A stretch of DNA of 32,553 bases from Chrysophaeum taylorii (taxonomy: Eukaryota > Sar > Pelagophyceae > Pelagomonadales > Pelagomonadaceae), in assembly GCA_029834535.1 (NCBI GenBank), contig JAQMWT010000408.1, forward strand, positions 102,501 through 135,053, given 5' to 3'. Shown here piece by piece: positions 1,612-32,553 of the stretch (the first letter of the stretch is position 1; each line of letters begins with the position of its first letter). The position numbers were made by a program, and so were the translations under genes. Below the pieces are notes generated by a model. The model was given only the letters and a program-made list of their open reading frames with translations. It did not search any database and was not told the DNA's origin.

Positions 1612-1962
1612 ACTTACTGGGACCAGGTGAATTTACTGGAACCAGGTGGACTTACTGGGGTTAGAGATTGGGACTAGGTGAACTTAGTGACCAGGTGAAC
1701 TTACCGAGACCAAGTGTGAACTTACGGGGGCTTTTAGAGCAAACTCAAAGCTTAGCGGCGTGTGCGGATCAAAGCAGCTTAGATTGGCGGGGGTGAGAGC
1801 GACGAGCTCAAAGGAGAGTGGGTGTGGGTTTACACCGAATTTACTGGGGTTAGAGATTGTGTTTAAACCGAATTTGCTGGGGTTAGAGATTGGGACTAGG
1901 CGAACTTAACAGAAACAGGTGAACTTGCTGGGGTTAGAGATTGGGACTAGGTGAACTTACTG
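1612..1962. repeat. Degenerate tandem repeat array
   Basis: About ten diverged copies of a unit built around GGTGAACTTACTGGGGTTAG followed by AGATTGGGACTA. Full-length examples lie at about 1647-1690, 1845-1870, 1876-1905 and 1927-1960. Shorter variants such as GACCAGGTGAATTTACTGGA fill the rest. Unit length varies between roughly 20 and 45 bp, so the array is internally rearranged. No protein frame is credible across it. The 460 bp to its right (to 2420) holds no feature I can support. Confidence 0.7.
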
Positions 1963-2420
1963 GCCTGCACTTGTGATGATCCTAAACCAAACAAGGTCCC
2001 TACGTCTCCCGGCCGCCGGGTCTGGGGGCTCCCGGACGGTCAGGCTCGCGATTGGCCCTCCCCTAAAAAGCGGCTTGCATCAGCGTCCTTCCTTCCACTC
2101 ACCCCAGCTCGCCTTTCCGCTCGACGCTCCGACCCCCGCCAATCTGAGCTGCTTTTATCAGCGCCCGCTCTGCCCTTAGCCTTTGAGTTTACTCCCAAAC
2201 CAAGCAAGGTGGGGGACCCACCGAACGTCGCGATCAAATAGCACATTATCAGCTTATTAGGACCGTATCGGGCCCAATGGCCCGGGGTGAAGATCATCGA
2301 GTCTCGCGAGCTTTTTTCTTGCCTCGTCCTCGACGTGGCTACCGACCTGCGCTGTTGGGCGCGATATGACGATATCGTACTCAAGCGCGAGGTAGGGAGA
2401 AAGGTTCTTCGCTGGCCATC

Positions 2421-5090: not shown

Positions 5091-5387
5091 CAAATTAAAT
5101 CAAAATGACTTTGGAATGAAATAAAGAATTTTCTGCAATTGATAACCGTTGAACCGTACCACAAATAAAATGAAGGATTAATCACATTCAAGAAAGCATT
5201 GGGCACTTTCCAGAGGAGACACCGGGCTGACGCGCACACTTTGCCTAGGACTTTTGTCGCCAAGGCCACATACATTTTCATTCGTAGTGACCATTCAGAA
5301 ACGTATATATTGGAAACCCCAAAGAACAGTGTACCAGAAAGTGCGAATTGGGTCTCGCAAGCAAAGCAAGAAGAACTGCGGGAGCAA
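5091..5387 (+). promoter_or_regulatory. AT-rich upstream region of the receptor gene
   Basis: Base composition changes to AT-rich (for example AACTAAAATCATACAAATTA, then several A/T runs to about 5190) just before the receptor gene, after the mixed-composition decayed DNA to the left. In a GC-rich genome this is a plausible core promoter and 5' leader. No defined box is clear enough to name. The frame is open upstream to 5199, but the first ATG followed by a signal peptide is at 5388. Confidence 0.3.
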
Positions 5388-7297
5388 ATGATAGGCGTGT
5401 GGTGGTGGTGCTTGGTGTGGGGTGTTGGCGCCGATGTGCTGCACGTGGGAACCTTCGTTCCATTCTCAGAGAGCCCCTCGAGTGACCAACCTTACAAGTC
5501 GGGGGTGACTCGACAGGTGGGCGTCGCGTCAATCCTGGCGGCGCAGCACTTTAACGACCGCGATGGTTCGATCGTCGACGTGTTGGGTGAGATGTCTGCG
5601 ACAACCGGCTGCGACTACGTCATCAACATTTCGATGTACAACACGCGAGTGCCGTGTCCGTGTGCCTCGCATGACCTGCGCTCGTGCAGATTCGCGTCGC
5701 CCTTCGAGACGATCCAGGCCTATCGTCAATCATACATGCACTTTGACGCGATTATCGGCGCTGGGCGGTCCGATTGCTCTGCGCCTCTGGCGATCAACGC
5801 GGGCATTGATTTACTTCCGCAGATTTCGTATCTTTCAACCTCGCCCTCTTTGGACGCCAAGGGCACATACCCTTTTTTCACGCGAACGATCCCGTCGGAC
5901 AACGCCGCCGCCGTCGCCGTCGCCGACTTTCTGGTTTATTACGGGTGGACGCGTGCGGCGATCATCCATGTCGTCGACACGTGCGTTACCGCCCCGAACA
6001 TTCGATCGCACACATCATGTAGGTATGGCAACGGCTACGCGAGTGCTATGGCGAGCGCGTGTCAGTCGCGAGGGATCAATTGCGAGAGCGTCGGCTACGA
6101 GACCCAAAACGCCAAGAGTATGGAGACGGCAGTCGACTTCGTGATGGAGACCGGCTCGCGCGTGCGTTTTTTCTTCCTTTGTGTGATTGCGTCGTGAGGG
6201 AAATCAGGTCTTCGTCGGGATCATGTACGACTGGGACCTCGAATCGGCGATTGGCCTCGCGCGCTCCCGAAATTTGACCGGAACGGATTCGATGTTTATC
6301 TTCTCGGATTCGATCAGCTCGCAGAAGATCACGGAGCTCGAGGGGGATAATGCCGAGGCAGTGAGGGGCGGGGCTCGCATCTACGCCACCGGGGCCGGCA
6401 TCGGCGATCCCGGAGACGCAGCCTTCGCGACGGCCTATCGAACGACGTACAACGCGAGCTTCTACAACAAATTTCTCGAGCCCGCCGAGCCCCACGCCAC
6501 CGTCACCGATGCCGAGCTCGCGGCCGGCAAGACGTACGACGTTGCGAATTATGCGTACGACGCTGTTGTCGCCCTCGGCCTCGCGGCGTGCGGCTTGCAG
6601 GCGAACGGCACGATAGCCGCGGGCAGGCGCCTCCTCGACGAGGTATACGTCACAACCTTTCACGGCGCATCCGGCAAGGTTGCTTTCGATTCATCCACCG
6701 GCTCGCGCAACGCGACGTCTGCGAACTATGTCGTCGAAAATTTCAAAGAGGTTGTTGAAAGCGGTACGCTCGAGTCCGTCGTGGTCGGCGTGTGGGCGCC
6801 CGATGGCTGGTCGCTCTTTGAATCGTTCGAGTTCAACGACGGCACGCAGACCCCGCCGCTGGACTACATCGACCTCGAGTGCGGCAACGGCATGCAGGAG
6901 GAGTCTGGAAAATGCGTGCGTGGCGTCTCTTTTGTACGCCAGAATGATGACAAAGGCCTCTCAGACGCCGTGCCCCAAAGGAATGTACCGCAAAGCGGGG
7001 ACCAAGCTCAAGTCGTGCATCCCTTGCCCCAAGGACTGGTTTGCCGCGAACGAGGGCTCGACGGAGTGCACGAGTTGTGGCCCAAACGCGATGACCAAGA
7101 TCGAGATCGACGAAGGGGCAGATTCTCCTACGGACTGCGTGTGCGAAGAAAACGCGTACTCGAGGGCCTGGCCGATCGAGCCGGATCGCGGCTGCGAGAG
7201 TTGTAGCGACTTAGATGCCTATTGTCCCGGTGGAACTTGTTGCAACCGGTGTCGTCAATCACCTGCCGCCTGCGTTCATCTCGAGGACAAACCATTC

Positions 7298-14937: not shown

Positions 14938-15885
14938 ATGAACCAGTCTTCTGGGTCGGGATTCGCCGTGGCCGACGTGACGCCTCCGGCGCCGAAAGTA
15001 CGACTTGGCCTCGTCGCGGATGTGCAACACGCCGACAAAGAGAACGGTGGATGCGATGGGCGCTCGCAGTTTTACCGGTCCGCGCCGGAGAAGCTCGCGC
15101 GTGCCATTGACGCGTTTCTCGAAAATAAGGTCTCCGGCGTGCTTAATTTGGGGGACTCAATAGACGGGAACGTCGACGAGATCTCAACGGCCCAAGACCT
15201 CGAGCGCGTCGCCACGCAGTTCGACCGCCTAGGGGCGCAGGGCCTGCCCGCGCACCACGTCCTCGGGAACCACTGCTTGAGCTTGCGAAGGGACGAATTT
15301 CAAAATCGCGTCGGCATGCCCGCGTCGTACTATAGCGTGCAGCTCGCGGAGGACTGGAAACTCGTTGTGTGCGACACCAACGACCTGGCGGTGCACGGCT
15401 GGGACGAGGGCACGCCGGAGCGTCGGCGCGCCGAGTCTTACCTCGAAGCTCACCCGGCGACCGAGCGAGACCCTCACATGACCGGTTGGAACGGCGGCAT
15501 CGGCGACGACCAGCTGGCCTGGCTGGAGGCACAGCTCGCCGAAGCCCAGTCGGTCGTCCTCGCAACGCACCATCCGATCCACGGGGCGCGCTCGACTCAT
15601 CTCGCGTGGAATTACCGGTCAATCCGCGCTCTAGTGGCAAAATATCGAGGCGTTGTCAAGCTCGCGCTCGCCGGACACGACCACGTCGGAGGCTATGGCG
15701 TATTCGACGGTGTTCACTTCGTCACGCTCGAGGCCATCCTCGAGACGCCGACGGACGCCTACGCATTCCTCGACATTTACGATGATCGCATCGACATTCG
15801 AGGCGTCGGCACGGCCACCTCCAGGACGATCCCGCTCGTGACGGTGACCACCGCAGCCCTCGAGGCGGCGGCGGCGGCGGCGTGA
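14938..15885 (+). CDS. ADPRM: Manganese-dependent ADP-ribose/CDP-alcohol diphosphatase-like metallophosphoesterase
   Basis: A single uninterrupted exon of 315 residues with the full motif series of calcineurin-like phosphoesterases in the ADPRM arrangement. ADVQ with D28 and Q30 replaces the usual DxH, as in ADPRM. LGDSIDG gives D73 and D76; LGNH gives N111 and H112. LATHHPIHG is near residue 223 and AGHDHVGGY near residue 250. NGGIGDDQLAWL and LAWNYRS also match conserved ADPRM segments. Known members hydrolyse ADP-ribose, CDP-choline and related compounds to nucleoside monophosphates using two metal ions, in the cytosol. Length matches the family (about 300-340). The C-terminus ends in a short Ala run encoded by GCG repeats. 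All metal ligands seem present, so activity is expected. Confidence 0.88.
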   Translation: MNQSSGSGFAVADVTPPAPKVRLGLVADVQHADKENGGCDGRSQFYRSAPEKLARAIDAFLENKVSGVLNLGDSIDGNVDEISTAQDLERVATQFDRLGAQGLPAHHVLGNHCLSLRRDEFQNRVGMPASYYSVQLAEDWKLVVCDTNDLAVHGWDEGTPERRRAESYLEAHPATERDPHMTGWNGGIGDDQLAWLEAQLAEAQSVVLATHHPIHGARSTHLAWNYRSIRALVAKYRGVVKLALAGHDHVGGYGVFDGVHFVTLEAILETPTDAYAFLDIYDDRIDIRGVGTATSRTIPLVTVTTAALEAAAAAA

Positions 15886-15996
15886 AAGGAAAGGAAAGGA
15901 ATGGAAAGAAAAGAAAAGAAAAGGAAAGAAAAGAAAAGAGTAGAAAAGAAAAGAAAAGAAAAGAAAAGAAAGGAAAGGAAAAGAAAAGAAAAGAAA
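15886..15996. repeat. Purine-strand GGAAA/GAAAA repeat tract
   Basis: About 110 bp directly after the ADPRM stop codon are almost pure purine on the plus strand, made of AAAGG and AAAAG pentamers, with only two T interruptions (15902 and 15941). Such mirror-like homopurine tracts can form triplex DNA and often vary in length. It lies within the likely 3' untranslated region of the ADPRM gene. Confidence 0.85.
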
Positions 15997-16342
15997 CCCC
16001 TTCTATTGTGTTCTCGTCGCCACACACGCAACGCGCGACGAACTTTCGGAACTTCCGTCTTGGTCGGCGTCGGGTGCTAATCTTTAAGGCACTTTGGACG
16101 GGCTGACTAATTGACTGACTTCGGGGCGACGTCCGAGACTCTACTCGCGACAAGCAGGCAGCGGGTTTGTCGTGCGCGCTAGCGCGCGCGCGCTGTCGCA
16201 TCACTTAGGGCGCTGGGCAATGGCGGCACAAGAAGAAGAAGAAGAAGAAGGAGAATGCAAAGCGAGAGGGAGAGGTTGCCCCTTGGGCTGCCGCGCGCGC
16301 CGTAGCACGAGAAGACACAAGTTACGACGCAGAGGTTGTGGG
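15997..16342. other. Spacer between converging ADPRM and UBA1 3' ends
   Basis: No gene is supported. The spacer has a GAA trinucleotide run at about 16230-16251 and a GCGC-rich patch (AGCGCGCGCGCGCT) at about 16181-16194. The open frame through 16172-16507 on the plus strand is antisense to the UBA1 C-terminus in part and shows no protein character. Confidence 0.5.
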
Positions 16343-24420: not shown

Positions 24421-25303
24421 AGCCAGTAAACTACCCGCCAGTGGCACCTACTGCCCCGGCACCAACACAACCTAGTACTACTACCTCTCCAGATCTTGCG
24501 GCATTATCCTTGTGGCGACAACTCCCGCCTCCTAAGGCTTACCCCTCTTCTAGGGCCCCCCTTATCAGGGGCACCCTACTCCGTTCTGATGATGTCAGTG
24601 TTCTCTATGACATCATCTTCCTTTTCCGTGACATGCGTCACCCTGATTTCTGTGTTTCGATATACCTTGATCATAAAGCAACAGCCGATCCTCAAGTTGT
24701 GAGGACCAGGCACGGAAGTTGTTTGTGGTCGTGTGGCGGGAGAACGGCCATCCTCGTCCAGTGACTCCACCAAGGGCACGGACGCGAGCGGCGAGCCAGG
24801 ATTCGAAGGCACGCCAGGTAGCCCCTAAAATTCTCCTTACGCCACAGGTGGTAGAGGATATGAGATGCGAGCGACTATATCGGTCGCAACGATCTAGTGC
24901 ATCTTGCATTCTCTACACGGTCCGGACAAGCGCCCTTATCAAGCGCGCCGACAAGGAATTCCAGAAGGAACACTGCCGTGGGAAAGTTCCCCGGCCGGAT
25001 ACGTTAGTCGTCGGAAGTGACGACGCGCGATTCGGTGCTAGCCGACGCGCAACCCGGGTACCGCTGCCGCAGGCGAGCGGAGTGAGATCGCAACTCACGG
25101 ATAAGGCATTGATTGCCGGGCAGAGACGAGTTCTGCCGCCCACCGGACTGATAGAATTGTCGGTGGAAGACGCACGCAACGACGATATTACGCGTGTCGT
25201 GGACGATTAGAAGTTCCAGAGTCGAAGGAGCTCGAGAACGACGACGATTCAACCATTTTGGACCCGCTCTGATCTCGGCCGACTAGAACGAGCCAGAGCC
25301 GAT
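24421..25303 (+). other. 5' LTR/leader candidate of the gypsy-type element
   Basis: This stretch lies between the end of copia similarity and the gag-like ATG at 25304. The left part is Pro/Thr-coding-looking, then pyrimidine-rich with inverted repeats (24588-24640). A frame open from 24719 ends with TAG at 25208-25210 and is in the same phase as the gag frame, so one stop codon separates them; gag might start upstream or the frame may be chance. TGGACCCGCTC at about 25259 has the TGG start expected of a tRNA primer-binding site, but no tRNA match can be confirmed here. LTR ends were not identified. Confidence 0.35.
24588..24640. promoter_or_regulatory. CRE/bZIP-like inverted repeat cluster
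   Basis: GATGATGTCA (24588-24597) and its exact reverse complement TGACATCATC (24608-24617) are separated by 10 bp, and 11 bp later TGACATGCGTCA (24629-24640) gives another TGAC..GTCA palindrome. TGACATCA and TGATGTCA are one base from the CRE consensus bound by bZIP factors. Inside a candidate 5' LTR this would be a natural enhancer or promoter element. Binding is inferred. Confidence 0.35.
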
Positions 25304-28235
25304 ATGGAAGACGATGATGCTGCCGTCGAGCAGCTACGATGTGAAGAACCGCCAAGCCGTCAGGATGAGACGAACGAGCGGAATGACGATGACGATAATG
25401 ACGACGATGAAGAAGAGCACGACACATTAGTTGACGACGAGGAAGAAGAGCTAGACTACAACGACGGCAAGCCCACGGAGAGACCGACGGGAGGACGATC
25501 GACAGCTCCGTCAACGCGTGCAGAACCCCCGGATGCAACGAAAATAAATGAGTTCTACGAGGCTCACTTGCGGTCATTGCGCGAAGAGGACGAACGCGCG
25601 CAAGAACGACTTTTAAAACAAACGGGGGAAGAGAACGAACGAAAAGAGCGGCTACAACGGAAGGAGATAAAAATAATGCAAGAGCAAACGCGGCACGTAC
25701 ACGCTCGATTAGATAAAATACACGAGCAATTACGATGGTTGACCCGCGAGAGGGATGAATTGCGTACGCCGAGTCGCCCGAGGCGAGCGAGCAGTCTCGA
25801 GGAAGAATTCCGACCCTCGGAGGTACCGCCGCCCACGCGAACGCGAGCGAAAGTTAGGAAGCCGCGCGACGACGACGACGAGTCGTCCGAGATGACCGAA
25901 GCGTCGTTAAACTACGAGCAAGAGCAATCCAAGTCGAAGGAGCTCACCCAAACCAAAATCCCCACAGAATCGGAGAATCTGACCGAAACGTCGTTTAACT
26001 ACGGGTCGAAGCCGACAACCGCTTCTAACCCGGTGTCACCGTTGGTGGCACGATATGATTTGTCGTCAGCTGACACAACCCTCGGTTTTGATGACGCGCC
26101 GGCGTTATGTGTGAATCCGATTTACGAGCCCCGTGCAGCCGATGACGCCCAAAGTAAGGGACCCGCCGCTGCTACGCTCGATGCTATGAGTTTACCTCCG
26201 GACATTCAAGTAGATGGCACTTCGTCTCCACGATCGATCAACGATGCGTCGCGGAGGATTACGTCGAATGATAAGCGCGCACCTGAGTACACACCCATCG
26301 AACGTCACGTGCCCTTTGGTGGCCAGTTTTTGACAGATATGACGTCGGGGACGACGCCTTCTTCTTTTGCAGGGCCCCCCGACGAACCGACTGCAGACGT
26401 TTTTGCAGATGTTTTATTCCCTTTGACGATGGCAGACAGTTCGTGTGCCGAAATTTCTTCTTTTGCAGGGCCCCCCGACGAACCGACTGCAGACGTTTTT
26501 GCAGATGTTTTATTCCCTTTGACGATGGCAGACAGTTCGTGTGCCGACATTTTTAGTGACGAGGCGATTGCCGATATTCGAAGCGATGGAGTGGATGATA
26601 GGCCGAGTGAAACGGCCGAGAAAATGAATACGAAAGCGGAAGAGATGAGGAATCTTATAACGCATGAACTGCCTTTGGAGCTCAGTGAAAGCCCTGGCGT
26701 ATTACTCACGAACGAAGAGTTCAAAGATTTTCAGCCTGCATATGATGATGGCTACGCGATAATAAAAGATCCCGAACATACTATGAGGGATGAGTATAGC
26801 TGCCGCCCGGAATCGAATTTGGATGGGACGATCAGCATGGATAATAGGAAGATGAGCGTACCGACGATACGGATACGAGCTCACTGTTTCCTGAGGAAGA
26901 AACCGCCAGAGCGGAAAGAAGTGCAATTCCGACCCGAGGCACGGATTTATTGGCCAACAGAGATTCAATTTACGTTTGGTCGAAGTTTTGGCAAGATGAC
27001 GACGCATGTGTCGATGTTTCGATAGACGAGACGATTGAGACAGTTTGGATAGGCTTGGGAGCACCAGTCGCCTACAGGGACGATCCAGAGGTACTAGGAC
27101 CTGCCGAACTGACGCCAGAGAGAGACAAAGATAACAAGAGCCCCAGTCGAAGTTCCCGCCGGCACAGACGACGCCGATCGCGCGACGACGAATACGACGG
27201 AGGCCGACACCAATATAATTTGGGTTTTTTGCGCGCAACGCTCACGTTTACGACCCCTTGCGGTCAACAGTTACCATTAGGAGTGATGGTGTACCCGAAC
27301 ACGGACACCCGCACCGACGACGCAGCAGACGCCCTTGCCGCGGCCGCATTCGAAGATCTTGCTCGCCCACCGATGGACGAGCCACCCAACGACGTACTGA
27401 CCAATCGTCGGTCCTTGGCACAGATTTATGAGCAGATGTCGAGCGATGAGCTCGAAGACTCGAGCGAGGAACTCGAAGACTCGAGCGAGGAACTCGAAGC
27501 TCCACGATACTGGGAAAGCGATTCAGATTCGGAAGATGAAGAAGCTACACCTTGTGAACCAGTGTCCGCGATAACGTTATTTGACGAGTCGTCCACGGAC
27601 GACCCACCGTTTATTTTTGACGAGGAAGCCCTCGATGCCATCGGCTTATCTTTGGACCCTCCAGAGACGACCGTTGGCGACCGAACTGGCTGTGAGCCAG
27701 ACATGGATTTCTGCAGTGATAGCTGGTGCGCTCATTCGACTGACGAGACGATGACCAGCGCGAGTAATGCAGACGACGATCTTACGATAGAGCTGACGTC
27801 GGGGACGACGCCATCTTTTCCTGCGGACCCCCCCGAAATGGTTTCGTTACTACGGATCGAGCCACGGATACGCCGCCGGAAGAAAAGGAGAGATTTAAGA
27901 ACAAGATTAGCAGCGTTCTCAAGTGGGACGAAGACGAGCCGACGTGGAACCTGCAGGATTGGTGGACGAGAACTCGGAATTTCTTGCTAAAGAAGCCACC
28001 AGAACAACCGCTCAGCTACGGACTCGATGCCGCAGCCGACACGGAACCGATCGCCGATGATGGTGAGAATCAACCGGCGACGAATGAATTCACAGATGCA
28101 TTCTGGAACGACGAAATGAATGATTTATGGGAGGGGTCGTTTGCTTCCAAGAACTACGAAGACCAGGATCAACTACCAGCGTTGATTCCCTCCGAGATTG
28201 TCTTGGAGGAAGAGCGGAAGCCGCCAGATAAATAG
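25304..28235 (+). CDS. Gag-like polyprotein region of the retroelement, three frames
   Basis: The first frame (25304-27025, 573 residues) has a very acidic N-terminus (Asp/Glu runs), a coiled coil at about residues 85-150 (Glu/Arg-rich, with HARLDKIHEQLRWLTRERDE) and a long acidic linker with a 32-residue tandem duplication. Coding continues at about 26990 in the frame open to 27990, which holds an Arg/Ser patch (SRSSRRHRRRRSRDDEYD), FLRATLTFTTPCGQQLPLGV and an LEDSSEE repeat. It then shifts at a seven-C run (27828-27834) to TDTPPEEKERFKNK and WNLQDWWTRTRNFLLKKPPE, ending at a TAG (28233-28235). Both shifts have the sign of a one-base deletion. No CCHC zinc knuckle is seen. Gag is inferred from position, charge and coiled coil, not from a recognised capsid fold. 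Confidence 0.5.
26360..26551 (+). repeat. 96-bp in-frame tandem duplication in gag-like region
   Basis: Units 26360-26455 and 26456-26551 are identical except for one base near the end (GAA versus GAC). Each encodes 32 residues starting SSFAGPPDEPTADV. The phrase before the first unit, TGACGTCGGGGACGACGCC (26340-26358), recurs exactly at 27794-27812 ahead of a diverged SF.A.PP segment, so a third, older copy exists 1.4 kb downstream. Confidence 0.9.
27451..27499 (+). repeat. 21-bp tandem repeat encoding LEDSSEE
   Basis: Two exact copies of CTCGAAGACTCGAGCGAGGA plus A (27451-27471, 27472-27492) followed by the start of a third. They encode LEDSSEE twice within the acidic second part of the gag-like region and are preceded by a related DELED segment. 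Confidence 0.85.
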
Positions 28236-28250
28236 GCTGCCGCGAGCGTT

Positions 28251-29440
28251 ATGGCGATGACGCCAACAACAGATGATACGAAAGCTCAAGCCGCGGTATC
28301 GATGCCCAACCCCGGAGATGAGCGAGTCAGAGCCCGATGTGCTCACACTTCGTTGACGCCGCGAGACGGCAAGACGATCGAAGATGATTTGGTTACCCTC
28401 AGTTGTTTAGATGCGGGTACTCTTACGTTTATAGCCTGTCACATCTACAGGAATCGTGACGGACCGAAATTCTCGACGACCATCGGTGTCGATGGAATGG
28501 CAGATGTTTCTTGTATTTGCCGAGAAATGGTCACAAAGTTGGCCAAAGATCAGTTGATTTTCGATGAAGGCGAACTTCCGATTAAGCGCAAGCTGTACGG
28601 ATCAGGGTTGAATACGACGACGATCTATCGTTGGATCGCCATTCAGGTCGCCCTCGCCGACGACTTTCTGCCCCCATTGTCGCTATTGTAGCCGATACGA
28701 ACTATCTGTTCCTGTCGGGAGGGCGCGATATACGAGTTTTAGGAGCCATCGTGGACTATCCCCACGATCGGATCGGTTTTTATCGAACCCAAGTCGTCTA
28801 CGGGCGCAAGAAGATTAAAGTTAAGGATGAACGAGTCGATGCACACATCGTGACCTTTCGATCTATTTACGATCGAAATCCGATAACGGTACCGATTTAC
28901 AATCATCAACACGATGCTTTCCGGCAGAGTCTCGACCTGGTCAAGACTCGAGTTTACGCTCGTTTGAGCACGATCAAAGATCTCCGAAGCCCGCCGCCGG
29001 AACGTACGGTAGCCTTGGCTACGCGGGGACATGCTACGACCAAATTCTCCCCAGCTCCGGGAGAAGCCGCGCAGGAAGTAGTTGCTTATGCTGCGCGCAC
29101 GCTTCAAATCGAGCCCGGTCGAACTTACAATCTACCGGTTATTTTGTCGAAACCTATGGAAATGGGACAGGTTTTCGTCGCTACGTTTGCTGAGAACGAG
29201 CAGTTGGGAGTTGTCGAAGGAATGTGTTCTTCTTGCGAAGAGCACGACCGGTCCGCTGCTCGGGTGGCGGTTACTGCCACGGAAGAAGTGCCGACGGTCG
29301 TCACTCGAGGCAAAGTCCTTGCGATTGGCGGTATCGTTAGGTACGAAGATGAGTTGAACGTCTCTACGATCAACGAACTTACGAAAGAATGTAAAGAAGG
29401 ATACTACGGGGGACCTTTCTTTCACCGTTTCTGTCGCTAG
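28251..29440 (+). CDS. Retropepsin-like protease region of the retroelement with altered active site
   Basis: The first frame (28251-28691) and the second (28631-29440) join at the five-C run near 28675 by a one-base shift. FSTTIGVDGMADVSCICREM (about 28470-28530) aligns with the catalytic loop of LTR-element aspartic proteases (iDSGAxxsfIs), but reads DGMA where D-S/T-G-A is expected. Downstream LYGSGLNTTTIYRWIAIQV and the turn FLSGGRDIRVLGAIVDYPHD match the second half of the fold (liLGmd.l...gaviDy...i.f). The remaining 200 residues (PPPERTVALATRGH; YNLPVILSKPMEMGQVFVAT) are a linker I cannot assign. Expected role is processing of the Gag-Pol precursor. The missing Ser/Thr-Gly raises doubt about activity in this copy. 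A TAG separates it from the gag frame and another TAG ends it. Confidence 0.5.
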
Positions 29441-29474
29441 TCACTTGACGCGATGCGACGAATCGTCCCCGCCG

Positions 29475-30890
29475 ATGCTGCTGAGCACGGTGCAGAAGGA
29501 CACTACGACCGCTATGGCGGACAAGTCCACCCTCAAACGACCTGAAGGCAGCGACGATTTCGCTCGAAGGTCAGAAGAAGATGAAAAGAAATGCCGCGAG
29601 ATCACCGAAGCGGAGATCCGCCGCCGATACGAAAAGGTTCAATGGCTTCCAATCACTTATCGCAAGGTGGTGATGCTGTTCATTGGAGCCGGAGGCAGTA
29701 CTTTAGGTCTCCAACGAGCCAACGAAACATGTGGGACGTCGTTTCGAGTCGTGTTAGCACTCGATGCGTCGGATACCGGCAACCAGATACACCACAAGAA
29801 TTTTCCGAACATTCCTGTGGTGCAGCACACACTGTGTGGTCGCTATGTTACAACCTTACGGTTGATCGAATCTTATTTACCCTACGCGGAATGGTCGTCG
29901 TCGATGTGTATCGCGTCGCCCCCCTGCGTACACTCCGCTCTGTGCAACTTGACCTCCAGAGATGTTGGGACAGGAGTCACCGCTACCCACTGGACGATGA
30001 AATTATGCAAAATGGCTGGTTTCTTCATGTGGTTGATAGAGCAGGAGGCTTCGATTATTTCTTACGTTGCACGTTTGCACCCTTACGTGCGCGTCGTCAA
30101 TTTTTACGACATAACTCCCAGTTTGATGAGCTGTCGCGTGCGATTGTCGGTTTCCAGCCATCCGCTCCATTTGCGCGCAGTTCCAAAGACTTGCAAGAAT
30201 ATGCAGCAAGAGTTCGCCGCAGCACTTGGCTACGCCGACGAACGACATTTACTTCAGATGAACAATTTAGGATCATCACGAGCCGCGACAGACGTAGCTT
30301 ACACCGTTGCGCGTGTCCCGCTTCGCGTAGGACCGCACCGTTCCGATTACAGATCTCTGAATCTGAAAATGACTTCGGAGTTGCTGACTATGCCCCTTGA
30401 TTTTGATTGGGCCGGCTTCTCCAGGACGACCTCGTTGAAACACTTGGCGTCCGTCGTGCCACCAGACGCGATGACTTTATTAGTACTCGATCTGCACAAC
30501 TCTGTGACCAAGGAATTTCACCTGAGCGGCGAGGCTTTGCCGTCAGCGTTGAGTCCTGCAGACCGACCGTTTGATTATTATTTGCAAGTTGATGAAACCA
30601 CCCTTCGTCACGTACAAGTTCCGCTGTTAAACACGCGCACACGTGTCGTAAGATGGGTGTCGACTGATGATCTCCAAGATCGCACTAAATGGAAACCTCC
30701 AGAGGTACCGTTGATTCCGCCTGTAACAGATGAGCCGGGGACGTCTCATGCTTCTTCTGCTGTCCCCCCCCCCGACAACCAAATTTGGACGTTCCGCCAG
30801 ATCCTGAGCGAGATCGGGAACCGAAGATTAAGAGCGAGCCGAGTGTTGGTGTCAAAGGCGAGAGGATCAACAAAAGCCACCCGGAAGTGA
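29475..30890 (+). CDS. DNA (cytosine-5) methyltransferase domain inside the retroelement
   Basis: The frame is uninterrupted from 29445 to 30890; 29475 is the first ATG, but the domain is probably made as part of a polyprotein. Numbering from 29445, motif I (SAM binding) is MLFIGAGGSTLGLQ at residues 77-90. The motif II region is VLALDASDTGNQIHHKNFP (103-121). Motif IV with the catalytic cysteine C161 is CIASPPCVHSALCNL (155-169), followed by SRDVGTGV. A motif VI-like WLIEQ with E199 replaces the usual ENV. The motif VIII RxR is TPSLMSCRVRLSVSSHPL (224-241). A weak motif X (GSSRAATDVAYTVAR) sits at 276-290. The enzyme would transfer methyl from S-adenosylmethionine to C5 of cytosine in DNA. 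Residues 320-440 are unassigned. Frame breaks flank it on both sides but none interrupts the catalytic core. It lies between protease and RT. Confidence 0.8.
   Translation: MLLSTVQKDTTTAMADKSTLKRPEGSDDFARRSEEDEKKCREITEAEIRRRYEKVQWLPITYRKVVMLFIGAGGSTLGLQRANETCGTSFRVVLALDASDTGNQIHHKNFPNIPVVQHTLCGRYVTTLRLIESYLPYAEWSSSMCIASPPCVHSALCNLTSRDVGTGVTATHWTMKLCKMAGFFMWLIEQEASIISYVARLHPYVRVVNFYDITPSLMSCRVRLSVSSHPLHLRAVPKTCKNMQQEFAAALGYADERHLLQMNNLGSSRAATDVAYTVARVPLRVGPHRSDYRSLNLKMTSELLTMPLDFDWAGFSRTTSLKHLASVVPPDAMTLLVLDLHNSVTKEFHLSGEALPSALSPADRPFDYYLQVDETTLRHVQVPLLNTRTRVVRWVSTDDLQDRTKWKPPEVPLIPPVTDEPGTSHASSAVPPPDNQIWTFRQILSEIGNRRLRASRVLVSKARGSTKATRK
30764..30773 (+). other. C10 run at the junction of methyltransferase and RT frames
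   Basis: Ten C residues occur in the methyltransferase frame as GTC CCC CCC CCC GAC. A shift of -1 here moves reading exactly into the frame that starts LDVPPDPERDREPKIKSEP and continues through the RT. It could be a slippery site for programmed -1 frameshifting, transcriptional slippage, or an under-called homopolymer in the assembly. Confidence 0.45.
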
Positions 30891-32474
30891 AACTAAAATG
30901 TGAGAAAAAGTTCGATGTGCCATGGAAAGATGCGCCGCGCGATGCTGAGGGTGCACCGCTGCCGCAAACTCCCGAGCATGTCAAGGATAACGAAGCAATG
31001 AAAGTTAAAATTCCTACGAAGGAAGAAGCTGACAAGGTTGTGCAGGAGCTGGGAATTTCTGACAATCCGCACTTAGATGACGAGGCGAAACTGATGCTCC
31101 GTCACTGTGTGCAATATTCTTGGGCCTTTTTCGACCCGATTATGAGACCTGTGGACTCACCTCCTGTGTCTCTACGATTCAAAGACGCGAATCCGCGACC
31201 GATTAAGATGACACCCTACCGATTGACGCCTGCGAAGCTCGATTGCCTCCGCAAGCAGATCAGCGAGTGGTGCCGGGATGGAGTCATTCGTCCGGCCAAC
31301 ACACCTTGGGGCTTTCCTGTGTTGATGCTTCCGAAGAAGGAGCTGAGATTGGAACGTCAAACGCGTTCCGTGCTGCAGTTGACTTACGTCAGCTCAACGA
31401 TCAATTGGTCAATGACAGTTGGCCGAACATTCGACAAGATGATGCTTTAGCTTTTCTCGCATGAGACGATGGCGGACATGCATAAATATTAGATGGATAC
31501 CACAACATACGTTGGATCCGGCAGCGCAGGGCGCTGTCACGATGGTTAGCCCTTAGCGCTCATGGTTTCTTGCGATTACGCAGGTGTGAAGACGGCCGGA
31601 GCTGCTGCTGGAAGCAAATGGCGAGCGACGCTGAAATGGATGTATCAAGACGGTTGCGTTTGTTGACGATATTATGATGGGATCCGACGATCTTCATCGA
31701 CATTTCAAGTTTGATCGAAGTGATTTGTCATTTGGCACAGAGAGGGTACAGCGGTCGAACCGCGAAGTTCCACAACTAAGGATGATATAAATTTCTGGGA
31801 CATTTCGCCCAGAAGCGAAGCCGAATCCGAAGACGCGGAAGCACTGCAGAGATGCGATTCCGGTTACTTTACCAGACCTTCCCCAGACCCAGATACGCTC
31901 TTTCATCAGCATGAGCGATTACTGCCGGCGATGGCGAAGGGCGCTCGAAGATCGTAGAACCGCTGAAGACGACCATGCCTCGAAGGTGTTGAAGTTCAGT
32001 GGACGCCCAGTGTCAGAAAGGGATACGTTGTGAAGCTTTGGTTGATTCCCGTAGGTCTACCACCCCGATTATGATCTGCCTTTTCAGATCCGATCCGTGA
32101 CTTCCAAGATGGACTTGGAGCGTATCTCTTCCAGATTGTCGAAGTCAAGGACAATGCCGGAAGAGTGACTCGAGAAGAACAGGTGATTGACTAGCTGGAG
32201 CCGAGCTGTGCCGAAGGAGATGCGCAATTACGAGCCCCGTCGGCTAGAGCTGCTGGCAGTTATACTTTCATCTAAGCACCGAGCCTACATCGAAGGGCAC
32301 CGGACTGTTTTGGGGACCGATCACCGAAATTTGACGTTTTACGTAAGGCGACGCACTCGCTCTGGGCAGCTTGCTCGTTGGGCGATGCGCCTCGCCAATT
32401 TGACCCTGAACGGTTACAAGCCGGGAAAGTCACCGGGAATGAGTATCCCTGACTGTGTATCCCGCAATCGATAG
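30790..32474 (+). pseudogene. Ty3/gypsy-type reverse transcriptase and RNase H of the retroelement
   Basis: After a charged linker, the RT begins with PYRLTPAKLDCLRKQISEWC and DGVIRPANTPWGFPVLMLPK (about 31220-31335). A one-base shift leads to FRAAVDLRQLNDQLVNDSWP (about 31365-31425), equivalent to gypsy RmcvDYRaLN. Further broken frames give LDGYHNI (about 31491), PAAQGAVTMVSP and the catalytic FVDDIMMGSDDLHRHF (31659-31706). IRSFISMSDYCRRW (about 31897) matches the thumb/connection rsFlGl..YYR.fI. RNase H follows: YEPRRLELLAVILSSKHRAY, LGTDHRNLTFY and LARWAMRLANLTLNGYKPGK, ending SIPDCVSRNR and a stop at 32472-32474. At least four indels and stops (TGA near 31459, TAA near 31477) interrupt it. 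Order and motifs are Ty3/gypsy, not copia or LINE. Integrase would lie past the right edge. Confidence 0.85.
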
Positions 32475-32553
32475 ATCGTATCATGAGACTGACGGGTTGG
32501 AGAACATTGAACCACGGTGTTCCAGAAGCCCGACTTCCGGCTGATGACAAAGG

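What the first reader, a model, noticed from the sequence alone, without database searches (positions are those of the whole stretch)
29475..30890. A cytosine-5 DNA methyltransferase captured by a gypsy-type retrotransposon
Seen in sequence: the signature motifs (FIGAGG, SPPC, I-E-Q, CRVRL followed by SSHP) appear in the right order and spacing in one frame, directly between a retropepsin-like region and a gypsy-type RT, all on one strand. Established knowledge: autonomous LTR elements normally encode only gag, protease, RT, RNase H and integrase; I recall reports of retrotransposon-borne cytosine methyltransferases in a dinoflagellate and a charophyte alga. Inference: the element could methylate its own copies or host DNA, perhaps softening the mutational or regulatory cost of new insertions. 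Host lineage, position before RT and the IEQ form of motif VI may be new.
Basis: partly seen in the sequence, partly recalled or inferred. Interest (0 to 1): 0.95.

Follow-up and report, generated by a model that had tools for sequence, protein, structure and literature searches.

The report
Algal retrotransposon carrying a DNA methyltransferase
A high-copy jumping element in a marine alga carries inside its own polyprotein a divergent enzyme domain of the kind that adds methyl marks to cytosine, and a second, unrelated element family in the same genome carries another one.

Summary
Window 29610-30638 (+) encodes a divergent C5-cytosine methyltransferase (MTase) domain. It lies inside the LTR-bounded unit of a Ty3/gypsy element of Chrysophaeum taylorii (Pelagophyceae): another copy has two 98%-identical LTRs around one intact 3,063-codon frame with MTase, RT, RNase H and integrase in that order. 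At least 118 MTase copies match in this genome, in two subfamilies. Between subfamilies dN/dS is 0.07 at near-saturated dS, like the element's RNase H, so the domain is maintained. All 42 copies read outscore 2,100 shuffles against a C5-MTase profile, but only motifs I-IV align and no fold was obtained. A second, copia-type family carries another MTase, mostly about 3.5 kb upstream of its RT. The kind is known (LINE/DIRS in Symbiodinium, gypsy in Klebsormidium; PMC5890265). New here: a stramenopile host, an MTase without detected relatives, plain LTRs, and gypsy plus copia carriers in one genome. Proposed, untested mechanism: Pol-borne MTase methylates element cDNA and host DNMT5 maintains the mark. 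No CpG depletion was seen, which gives this no support. The window copy itself is broken after the MTase.

The parts
24511..32553 (+). Gypsy element copy, 5' LTR to the end of window and contig; its 3' part is cut off by the contig end
   Evidence: blastn to the C5 copy: 24511-26456 at 93.3% and 26455-32516 at 94.2%; contig ends at 135053
24511..24846 (+). 5' LTR, 336 bp, TGTGGCG...CGCCACA
   Evidence: matches both LTRs of the C5 copy; ends read; 41 listed matches in the genome, a lower bound
25211..28235 (+). gag-side coding region in several frames (604, 380 and 155 codons), not recognised by Pfam
28488..28511 (+). candidate protease motif VDGMADVS (unconfirmed)
   Evidence: sequence; same motif at residue 1051 of the C5 frame
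28586..29440 (+). region between protease candidate and MTase, 284-codon frame; no Pfam match
   Evidence: dN/dS 0.10 in the C5/sister comparison
29358..30890 (+). open frame of 510 codons holding the MTase
29610..30638 (+). C5-cytosine MTase domain, 343 residues
   Evidence: PF00145; hhalign 90%; above 2,100 shuffles; dN/dS 0.07
29679..29696 (+). motif I FIGAGG (SAM binding)
29916..29927 (+). motif IV SPPC (catalytic Cys)
   Evidence: Cys in 42 of 42 copies
30036..30044 (+). motif VI IEQ (usual form ENV)
   Evidence: Glu and Gln in 42 of 42 copies
30132..30146 (+). motif VIII CRVRL
   Evidence: both Arg in 42 of 42 copies
30351..30410 (+). motif IX-like stretch
   Evidence: sequence; assignment by eye
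30447..30464 (+). motif X-like ASVVPP
   Evidence: sequence; last Pro in 42 of 42 copies; assignment by eye
30764..30773 (+). run of ten C at the MTase/RT junction; the RT frame differs from the MTase frame after it
   Evidence: sequence; run of 5-12 C in other copies
31253..31943 (+). RT remnant in three frames
   Evidence: tblastn of the C5 RT (row L009); RVT_1 in the C5 copy

Best explanation
SHOWN: a high-copy Ty3/gypsy LTR retrotransposon family of the pelagophyte Chrysophaeum taylorii encodes a divergent, selectively maintained C5-MTase-like domain in its polyprotein, upstream of RT and inside the LTRs; both subfamilies have it, so it was there before they diverged. INFERRED: the domain is an active MTase made and packaged with RT and integrase, and it methylates the element's own cDNA de novo during or just after reverse transcription. 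The host has a DNMT5-like gene (DNMT5 is a maintenance enzyme in Cryptococcus; recalled), which would keep the mark after integration. New copies would then enter the genome already looking like silent 'self' DNA, which protects incoming cDNA and lowers the cost of each insertion to the host. About 0.93 for anatomy and identity, about 0.45 for the cDNA-methylation mechanism; the score is for the whole statement.
For: LTRs round one frame with MTase-RT-RNaseH-IN; at least 118 copies in two subfamilies; dN/dS 0.07 between subfamilies, as low as RNase H; catalytic Cys, motif VI Glu and motif VIII Arg pair in 42 of 42 copies; PF00145 16 of 16, 42 of 42 copies above shuffles, hhalign 90%. A second LTR family with its own MTase argues that the enzyme pays off for elements. 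Host DNMT5-like gene. Precedent: SymbioDIRS MTase domains methylate CG de novo in yeast (PMC5890265).
Against: No activity, expression or methylation data. No CpG depletion of the element (1.31-1.33 against 1.29 for the host part); fourfold CpG C/T differences are lower than elsewhere in the main family (0.042 against 0.083; only the sister family shows a modest excess, 0.087 against 0.048). Only motifs I-IV align to known MTases; motifs VI and X are non-canonical. KnitGypsy-Dnmt3 and SymbioLINE domains gave no methylation in yeast, which the authors call inconclusive.
Confidence: 0.5

Rival explanations
1. The domain is an RNA m5C methyltransferase. It modifies the element's genomic RNA or its tRNA primer, as DNMT2 does for tRNA, and so stabilises RNA or tunes priming or packaging.
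For: The only MTase chains that the family profile touches in the PDB are DNMT2; no CpG footprint; a Pol-borne enzyme would be packaged with RNA (inference).
Against: The DNMT2 match is not significant: E 0.25-0.26 over residues 20-77 only, while the host's own DNMT2 gives 3.9e-39.
Confidence: 0.2
2. The domain acts in trans on the host genome, not on its own cDNA: it methylates target chromatin or neighbouring copies, restraining transposition or opening insertion sites.
For: Very high copy number could make such activity matter; PMC5890265 discusses it for Symbiodinium.
Against: No data here; a benefit to the single copy that makes the enzyme is harder to see, although selection on each lineage is strong.
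Confidence: 0.15
3. The domain has lost catalysis and serves as a structural or nucleic-acid-binding part of Pol.
For: Motifs VI and X are non-canonical; the match to PF00145 is short.
Against: Catalytic Cys, motif VI Glu and motif VIII Arg pair are kept in 42 of 42 copies at dS near 1.7.
Confidence: 0.09
4. It is not a C5-MTase at all; the motifs are chance in an unrelated Pol spacer.
For: The window copy alone is under the Pfam cut-off; no homologue among 4,480 and 5,773 candidates; a narrow family profile does not recover reference MTases above shuffles; no confident fold.
Against: PF00145 down to 4.7e-6, 16 of 16 copies; hhalign probability 90%, E 1.7e-6; 42 of 42 copies above 2,100 shuffles; 0 of 200,000 shuffles meet the motif order.
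Confidence: 0.04

Closest known systems
KnitGypsy-Dnmt3 of Klebsormidium nitens (PMC5890265, parts 1-4 of 7 read)
   Same: C5-MTase in the Pol frame of a gypsy-type element; purifying selection on it
   Different: There the MTase is Dnmt3-related and the repeats are laid out as in DIRS; here plain LTRs at both ends, an MTase with no significant tie to a DNMT family in the tests made, a stramenopile host and at least 118 copies; the paper says K. nitens has fewer copies than Symbiodinium
SymbioLINE-Dnmt and SymbioDIRS-Dnmt3 of Symbiodinium (PMC5890265)
   Same: High-copy retrotransposons with a C5-MTase under purifying selection; SymbioLINE MTases are also an orphan lineage
   Different: LINE and DIRS elements, dinoflagellate host; SymbioLINE is CpG-depleted, this element is not
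DNMT3 in LTR Copia and DIRS elements, as stated in one sentence of PMC12344493 (passages)
   Same: Copia-type carrier of a C5-MTase, like the second family found here
   Different: That sentence cites the 2018 streptophyte and dinoflagellate elements; the copia family here is in a pelagophyte and its MTase was not tied to DNMT3 (no test made)
Transposons with Dam-like or ParB-N4C/N6A methylases (DIRS, PMC5890265; Sola1 of Ectocarpus, PMC12477816 passages)
   Same: Mobile elements carrying a DNA methylase
   Different: Different enzyme class (N6-adenine or N4-cytosine) and other element types
Host DNMT5-like (L002) and DNMT2 (L001) genes
   Same: C5-MTase domain in the same genome
   Different: Not detectably close to the element domain: DNMT2 scores 5.9 bits, among shuffles, and DNMT5 is not in the 25 best rows shown

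Membership tests
C5-cytosine MTase (PF00145) | profile score over the curated cut-off (22 bits) | tested here: inconclusive
   window copy 17-18.3 bits, not met; C5 copy 25.3 bits, met; aligned part is motifs I-II only
C5-cytosine MTase (PF00145) | motif I and motif IV Pro-Cys (motifs recalled) | tested here: met
   first two Gly of motif I and Cys in 42 of 42 copies; last Gly 41 of 42; second Pro 41 of 42; aligned by hhalign and by the A3 profile
C5-cytosine MTase (PF00145) | motif VI ENV | tested here: inconclusive
   IEQ: Glu kept 42 of 42, Asn replaced by Gln; not reached by profile alignments
C5-cytosine MTase (PF00145) | motif VIII RxR | tested here: met
   both Arg in 42 of 42 copies; located by eye
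C5-cytosine MTase (PF00145) | motif X GNxV | tested here: not met
   ASVV at the expected place; identification of the place is by eye
C5-cytosine MTase (PF00145) | class I MTase fold | tested here: inconclusive
   single-sequence prediction failed, pLDDT 31.9
C5-cytosine MTase (PF00145) | methylation activity | not testable with these tools
   needs bench work
DNMT2 | significant match over the whole DNMT2 sequence | tested here: not met
   profile against PDB DNMT2: E 0.25-0.26, residues 20-77 only
DNMT3 (as in KnitGypsy-Dnmt3) | groups with DNMT3 in a tree | not tested
   no DNMT3 sequences fetched; no PDB DNMT3 chain among 3 matches at E <= 1
Ty3/gypsy LTR retrotransposon | RT, RNase H, then integrase in one Pol | tested here: met
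   C5 copy: RVT_1, RT_RNaseH, Integrase_H2C2, rve in order
Ty3/gypsy LTR retrotransposon | direct LTRs at both ends | tested here: met
   C5 copy, 98.24% over 341 bp; window shows the 5' LTR only
Ty3/gypsy LTR retrotransposon | target-site duplication | tested here: inconclusive
   none seen by eye at the C5 copy
Ty3/gypsy LTR retrotransposon | gag and aspartic protease | tested here: inconclusive
   no Pfam match at E <= 0.5; DGMA motif only
Copia LTR retrotransposon (second family) | copia-type RT (RVT_2) in one frame with the MTase | tested here: met
   RVT_2 4.8e-40; on C96 and C314 MTase and RT report frames of equal length and lie in phase
Copia LTR retrotransposon (second family) | LTRs and integrase before RT | tested here: inconclusive
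   LTRs not looked for; no integrase match in the stretch read

The most novel reading that the evidence does not exclude
In this alga two LTR superfamilies, gypsy and copia, independently captured two different C5-MTases, and these element-borne enzymes are the genome's main de novo cytosine methylators, with the host supplying only maintenance by DNMT5. Element and host would then share one methylation system, and new insertions would be born methylated.
Probability: 0.17. Interest if true: 0.92.

Novelty: new variant of a known kind. Interest (0 to 1): 0.72.

Why it matters
Retrotransposons carrying the very enzyme class used to silence them are known from two lineages (dinoflagellates, charophytes) in the papers I saw. 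A third, distant lineage (stramenopiles), with gypsy and copia carriers side by side in a 71 Mb genome and a DNMT5-like host enzyme, would show that the acquisition is recurrent and selected, and would give a tractable setting to test whether self-methylation helps an element. One long-read methylome of this alga would go far to answer it.

Tried and rejected
Protein searches: the 343-aa domain scored nothing at E <= 0.001 among 4,480 candidates; the domain scored inside a 1,767-aa piece, nothing among 5,773. Word-based searching and length limits make both blind to distant relatives. Viral contigs: 28 stretches matched a pattern, none a relative. Genome contigs with the host DNMT2: 44 stretches matched a pattern, none a relative.

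Structure: one single-sequence AlphaFold job failed (pLDDT 31.9), so no fold search was run.

Family profile A1 against 17 reference MTases and 3,400 shuffles: of the 25 best rows shown, three references exceed 4 bits (8.7, 5.9, 4.8) and they mix with shuffles (8.1, 4.9). This narrow profile has no power; the reverse direction works.

Rejected: MTase outside the element; bacterial contamination (the contig carries a UBA1 matching a named C. taylorii protein); a detectable direct relation of the gypsy and copia MTases (hhalign probability 0.5%; deep homology as C5-MTases is not excluded). Self-methylation read from CpG decay: no clear footprint.

A first count of motif residues assumed a fixed offset and misread one copy (L035); it is replaced by the aligned count.

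Full report
WHERE. The window is the last 32,553 bases of contig C408 of a 70.8 Mb genome. Its UBA1 frame matches a protein annotated for Chrysophaeum taylorii at 100% identity over 89% of the query, on a 135,053-base contig, the length of C408. The species is a pelagophyte, Ochrophyta, Stramenopiles. In its genome paper (PMC10366177, passages only) the words beginning 'transpos' and 'repeat' do not occur in the main text.

THE DOMAIN. The frame 29358-30890 is open for 510 codons. PF00145 matches the window copy weakly (E 0.0041 on the frame, 0.0017 on the domain), the C5 copy above the cut-off (1.3e-5, 25.3 bits), and 16 of 16 aligned copies at E <= 0.01. Against a profile of 14 C5-MTases (E. 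coli Dcm, 12 phage enzymes, the host DNMT2), 42 of 42 copies (the window's own included) score 7.7-17.4 bits, while the best of 2,100 shuffles scores 3.6. Of nine pieces of the C5 polyprotein eight were reported, and only the one with the MTase start is positive (16.5 bits; the next -0.7). hhalign gives 90% probability over columns 17-109, motifs I-IV. Beyond motif IV the case rests on motifs in order (0 of 200,000 shuffles) and on conservation: motif IV Cys, motif VI Glu and both motif VIII Arg are kept in 42 of 42 copies; one copy has Ala for the last Gly of motif I (L021) and one has Leu for the second Pro of motif IV (L049). Two of the 42 have a stop in the domain. Motifs VI (IEQ) and X (ASVV) are non-canonical. 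Against the PDB the family profile gives nothing significant; the best is DNMT2 at E 0.25. A structure prediction from one sequence failed.

THE ELEMENT. On contig C5 a copy has LTRs matching over 341 bp at 98.24%, around one frame of 3,063 codons. Searched in seven pieces, that frame gives PF00145, RVT_1 (6.4e-13), RT_RNaseH (6.6e-22), Integrase_H2C2 (4.6e-16) and rve (1.7e-12), in that order: a Ty3/gypsy order with the MTase before RT. Gag and protease were not recognised; a DGMA motif at residue 1051 is the only protease candidate. The window copy aligns from its 5' LTR at 24511 to 32516 at 93-94%. Its RT is split over three frames, and the contig end cuts off the rest. A genome search with the domain listed 118 matches (118 scored of 1,048 candidates, so a lower bound): 101 at 85-100% identity including the window's own, and 17 at 77-81%, a sister subfamily. 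I compared 40 of the 41 listed LTR places (40 scored of 481 candidates) with 43 of the 118 MTase places: 15 LTR places lie within 8 kb of an MTase on the same strand, and 6 of these start 3,922-3,936 bp after it, as in the C5 copy (3,931); the other nine vary. The other 25 LTR places have no listed MTase near, which capped lists, solo LTRs or contig ends may explain.

SELECTION. Median dN/dS of the MTase is 0.157 within the main family (378 pairs, 28 copies without stops) and 0.119 within the sister family (66 pairs, 12 copies). Between them it is 0.070 (336 pairs), with median dS 1.72, close to saturation. Between the C5 copy and one sister copy: RT 0.017, MTase 0.074, RNase H 0.076, C-terminal part 0.088, post-MTase 0.095, pre-MTase 0.10; residues 501-1000 0.31 over only 145 codons; residues 1-500 no match; integrase dS saturated. 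The domain is kept like the element's RNase H, less strictly than its RT. These are Nei-Gojobori values.

METHYLATION FOOTPRINT. CpG observed/expected is 1.31 (C5 element), 1.33 (window copy), 1.21 (sister) and 0.79 (one LTR), against 1.29 for the window's host part and 0.98 for the C5 flanks. At fourfold sites C/T differences per site are 0.042 in CpG and 0.083 elsewhere in the main family (24 copies), and 0.087 against 0.048 in the sister family (8 copies). So there is no sign of CpG decay in the main family and a modest one in the small sister set. This neither shows nor excludes methylation.

A SECOND FAMILY. Of 57 listed PF00145 matches in the genome (123 of 474 candidates scored), two are host-type genes: a DNMT2 (PDB DNMT2 E 3.9e-39) and a DNMT5-like protein (PDB 7r76, named Rad8 in the table and recalled as Cryptococcus Dnmt5, E 3e-143, with SNF2 and helicase-C pieces). 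52 overlap rows of another MTase family; of the remaining three, two sit upstream of that family's RT rows and one is unassigned. This family's MTase has PCQ and ENV, PF00145 at 5.1e-12, hhalign 96% against C5-MTases, and a DGGAS protease-like motif upstream in the same frame in L006. Downstream lies a copia-type RT (RVT_2, 4.8e-40). On C96 and on C314 MTase and RT report frames of equal length (1,952 and 1,868 codons) and lie in phase at the same spacing. Of the first 60 of 153 RT matches, checked against 121 of 130 MTase matches, 35 have an MTase upstream on the same strand at 2.8-4.4 kb, mostly about 3.5 kb. Median dN/dS of six copies is 0.139 (15 pairs). The two MTases are not detectably related to each other, so two captures are likely, but no tree was made. 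LTRs of this family were not looked for, and no integrase domain was recognised.

MECHANISM. Best guess: the MTase acts within or is released from Pol, methylates the new cDNA, and DNMT5 maintains the mark. Shown: the domain, its place and its maintenance. Inferred: activity, packaging, substrate, benefit. Rivals are listed with their weights. Whether the host has other de novo DNMTs is open: PF00145 was sought exon by exon on a capped list, and PMC9998398 (passages) reports DNMT5a and DNMT6 in pelagophytes.

WHAT IS KNOWN. PMC5890265 (parts 1-4 of 7 read; passages) describes LINE and DIRS carriers in Symbiodinium and a gypsy carrier, KnitGypsy-Dnmt3, with DIRS-like repeats, in Klebsormidium, and shows CG methylation in yeast by SymbioDIRS domains. 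PMC12344493 (passages) mentions DNMT3 in LTR Copia and DIRS elements in one sentence. PMC6338049 (passages) discusses methylase domains in retrotransposon polyproteins. Seven searches of the open-access library, of which I saw the top listings (20 of 77, 3 of 3, 6 of 6, 15 of 218, 15 of 1,106, 10 of 13 and 3 of 3), showed no report of C5-MTase retrotransposons in a pelagophyte or another stramenopile; subscription papers and preprints were not covered, nor Repbase-type reports. Hence a new variant of a known kind.

Noticed in passing
L003-L008, L070 (contigs C4, C120, C64, C326, C683, C564); not in the window: A second, copia-type LTR family with a different C5-MTase upstream of its RT, at least 130 MTase matches in the genome.
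   Followed up: partly
window 30764-30773 and the same place in other copies: Run of 5-12 C between MTase and RT. RT linker in the MTase frame in 17 of 30 main and 2 of 12 sister copies, otherwise shifted. Hypermutable run, assembly error or slippage site.
   Followed up: partly
L002, L057 (contig C621): Host DNMT5-like gene: C5-MTase plus SNF2 and helicase-C pieces.
   Followed up: yes
L001 (contig C634): Host DNMT2-like gene in one exon.
   Followed up: yes
window 1618-1965: Short repeats (TTACTGGGGTTAGAGATTGGGACTAGG) that also flank the C5 element and the C235 sister element; perhaps a preferred landing site.
   Followed up: no
window 26359-26550: 96-bp tandem duplication (99%) in the gag-side coding region of the element.
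   Followed up: no
window 5169-7206: ANF_receptor ligand-binding domain (E 3.1e-18 and 5.3e-8) over two frames, an animal-receptor-like gene in a pelagophyte.
   Followed up: no
window 15867-16004: AG-rich run of AGAAA/AGGAA units next to a GGC run.
   Followed up: no
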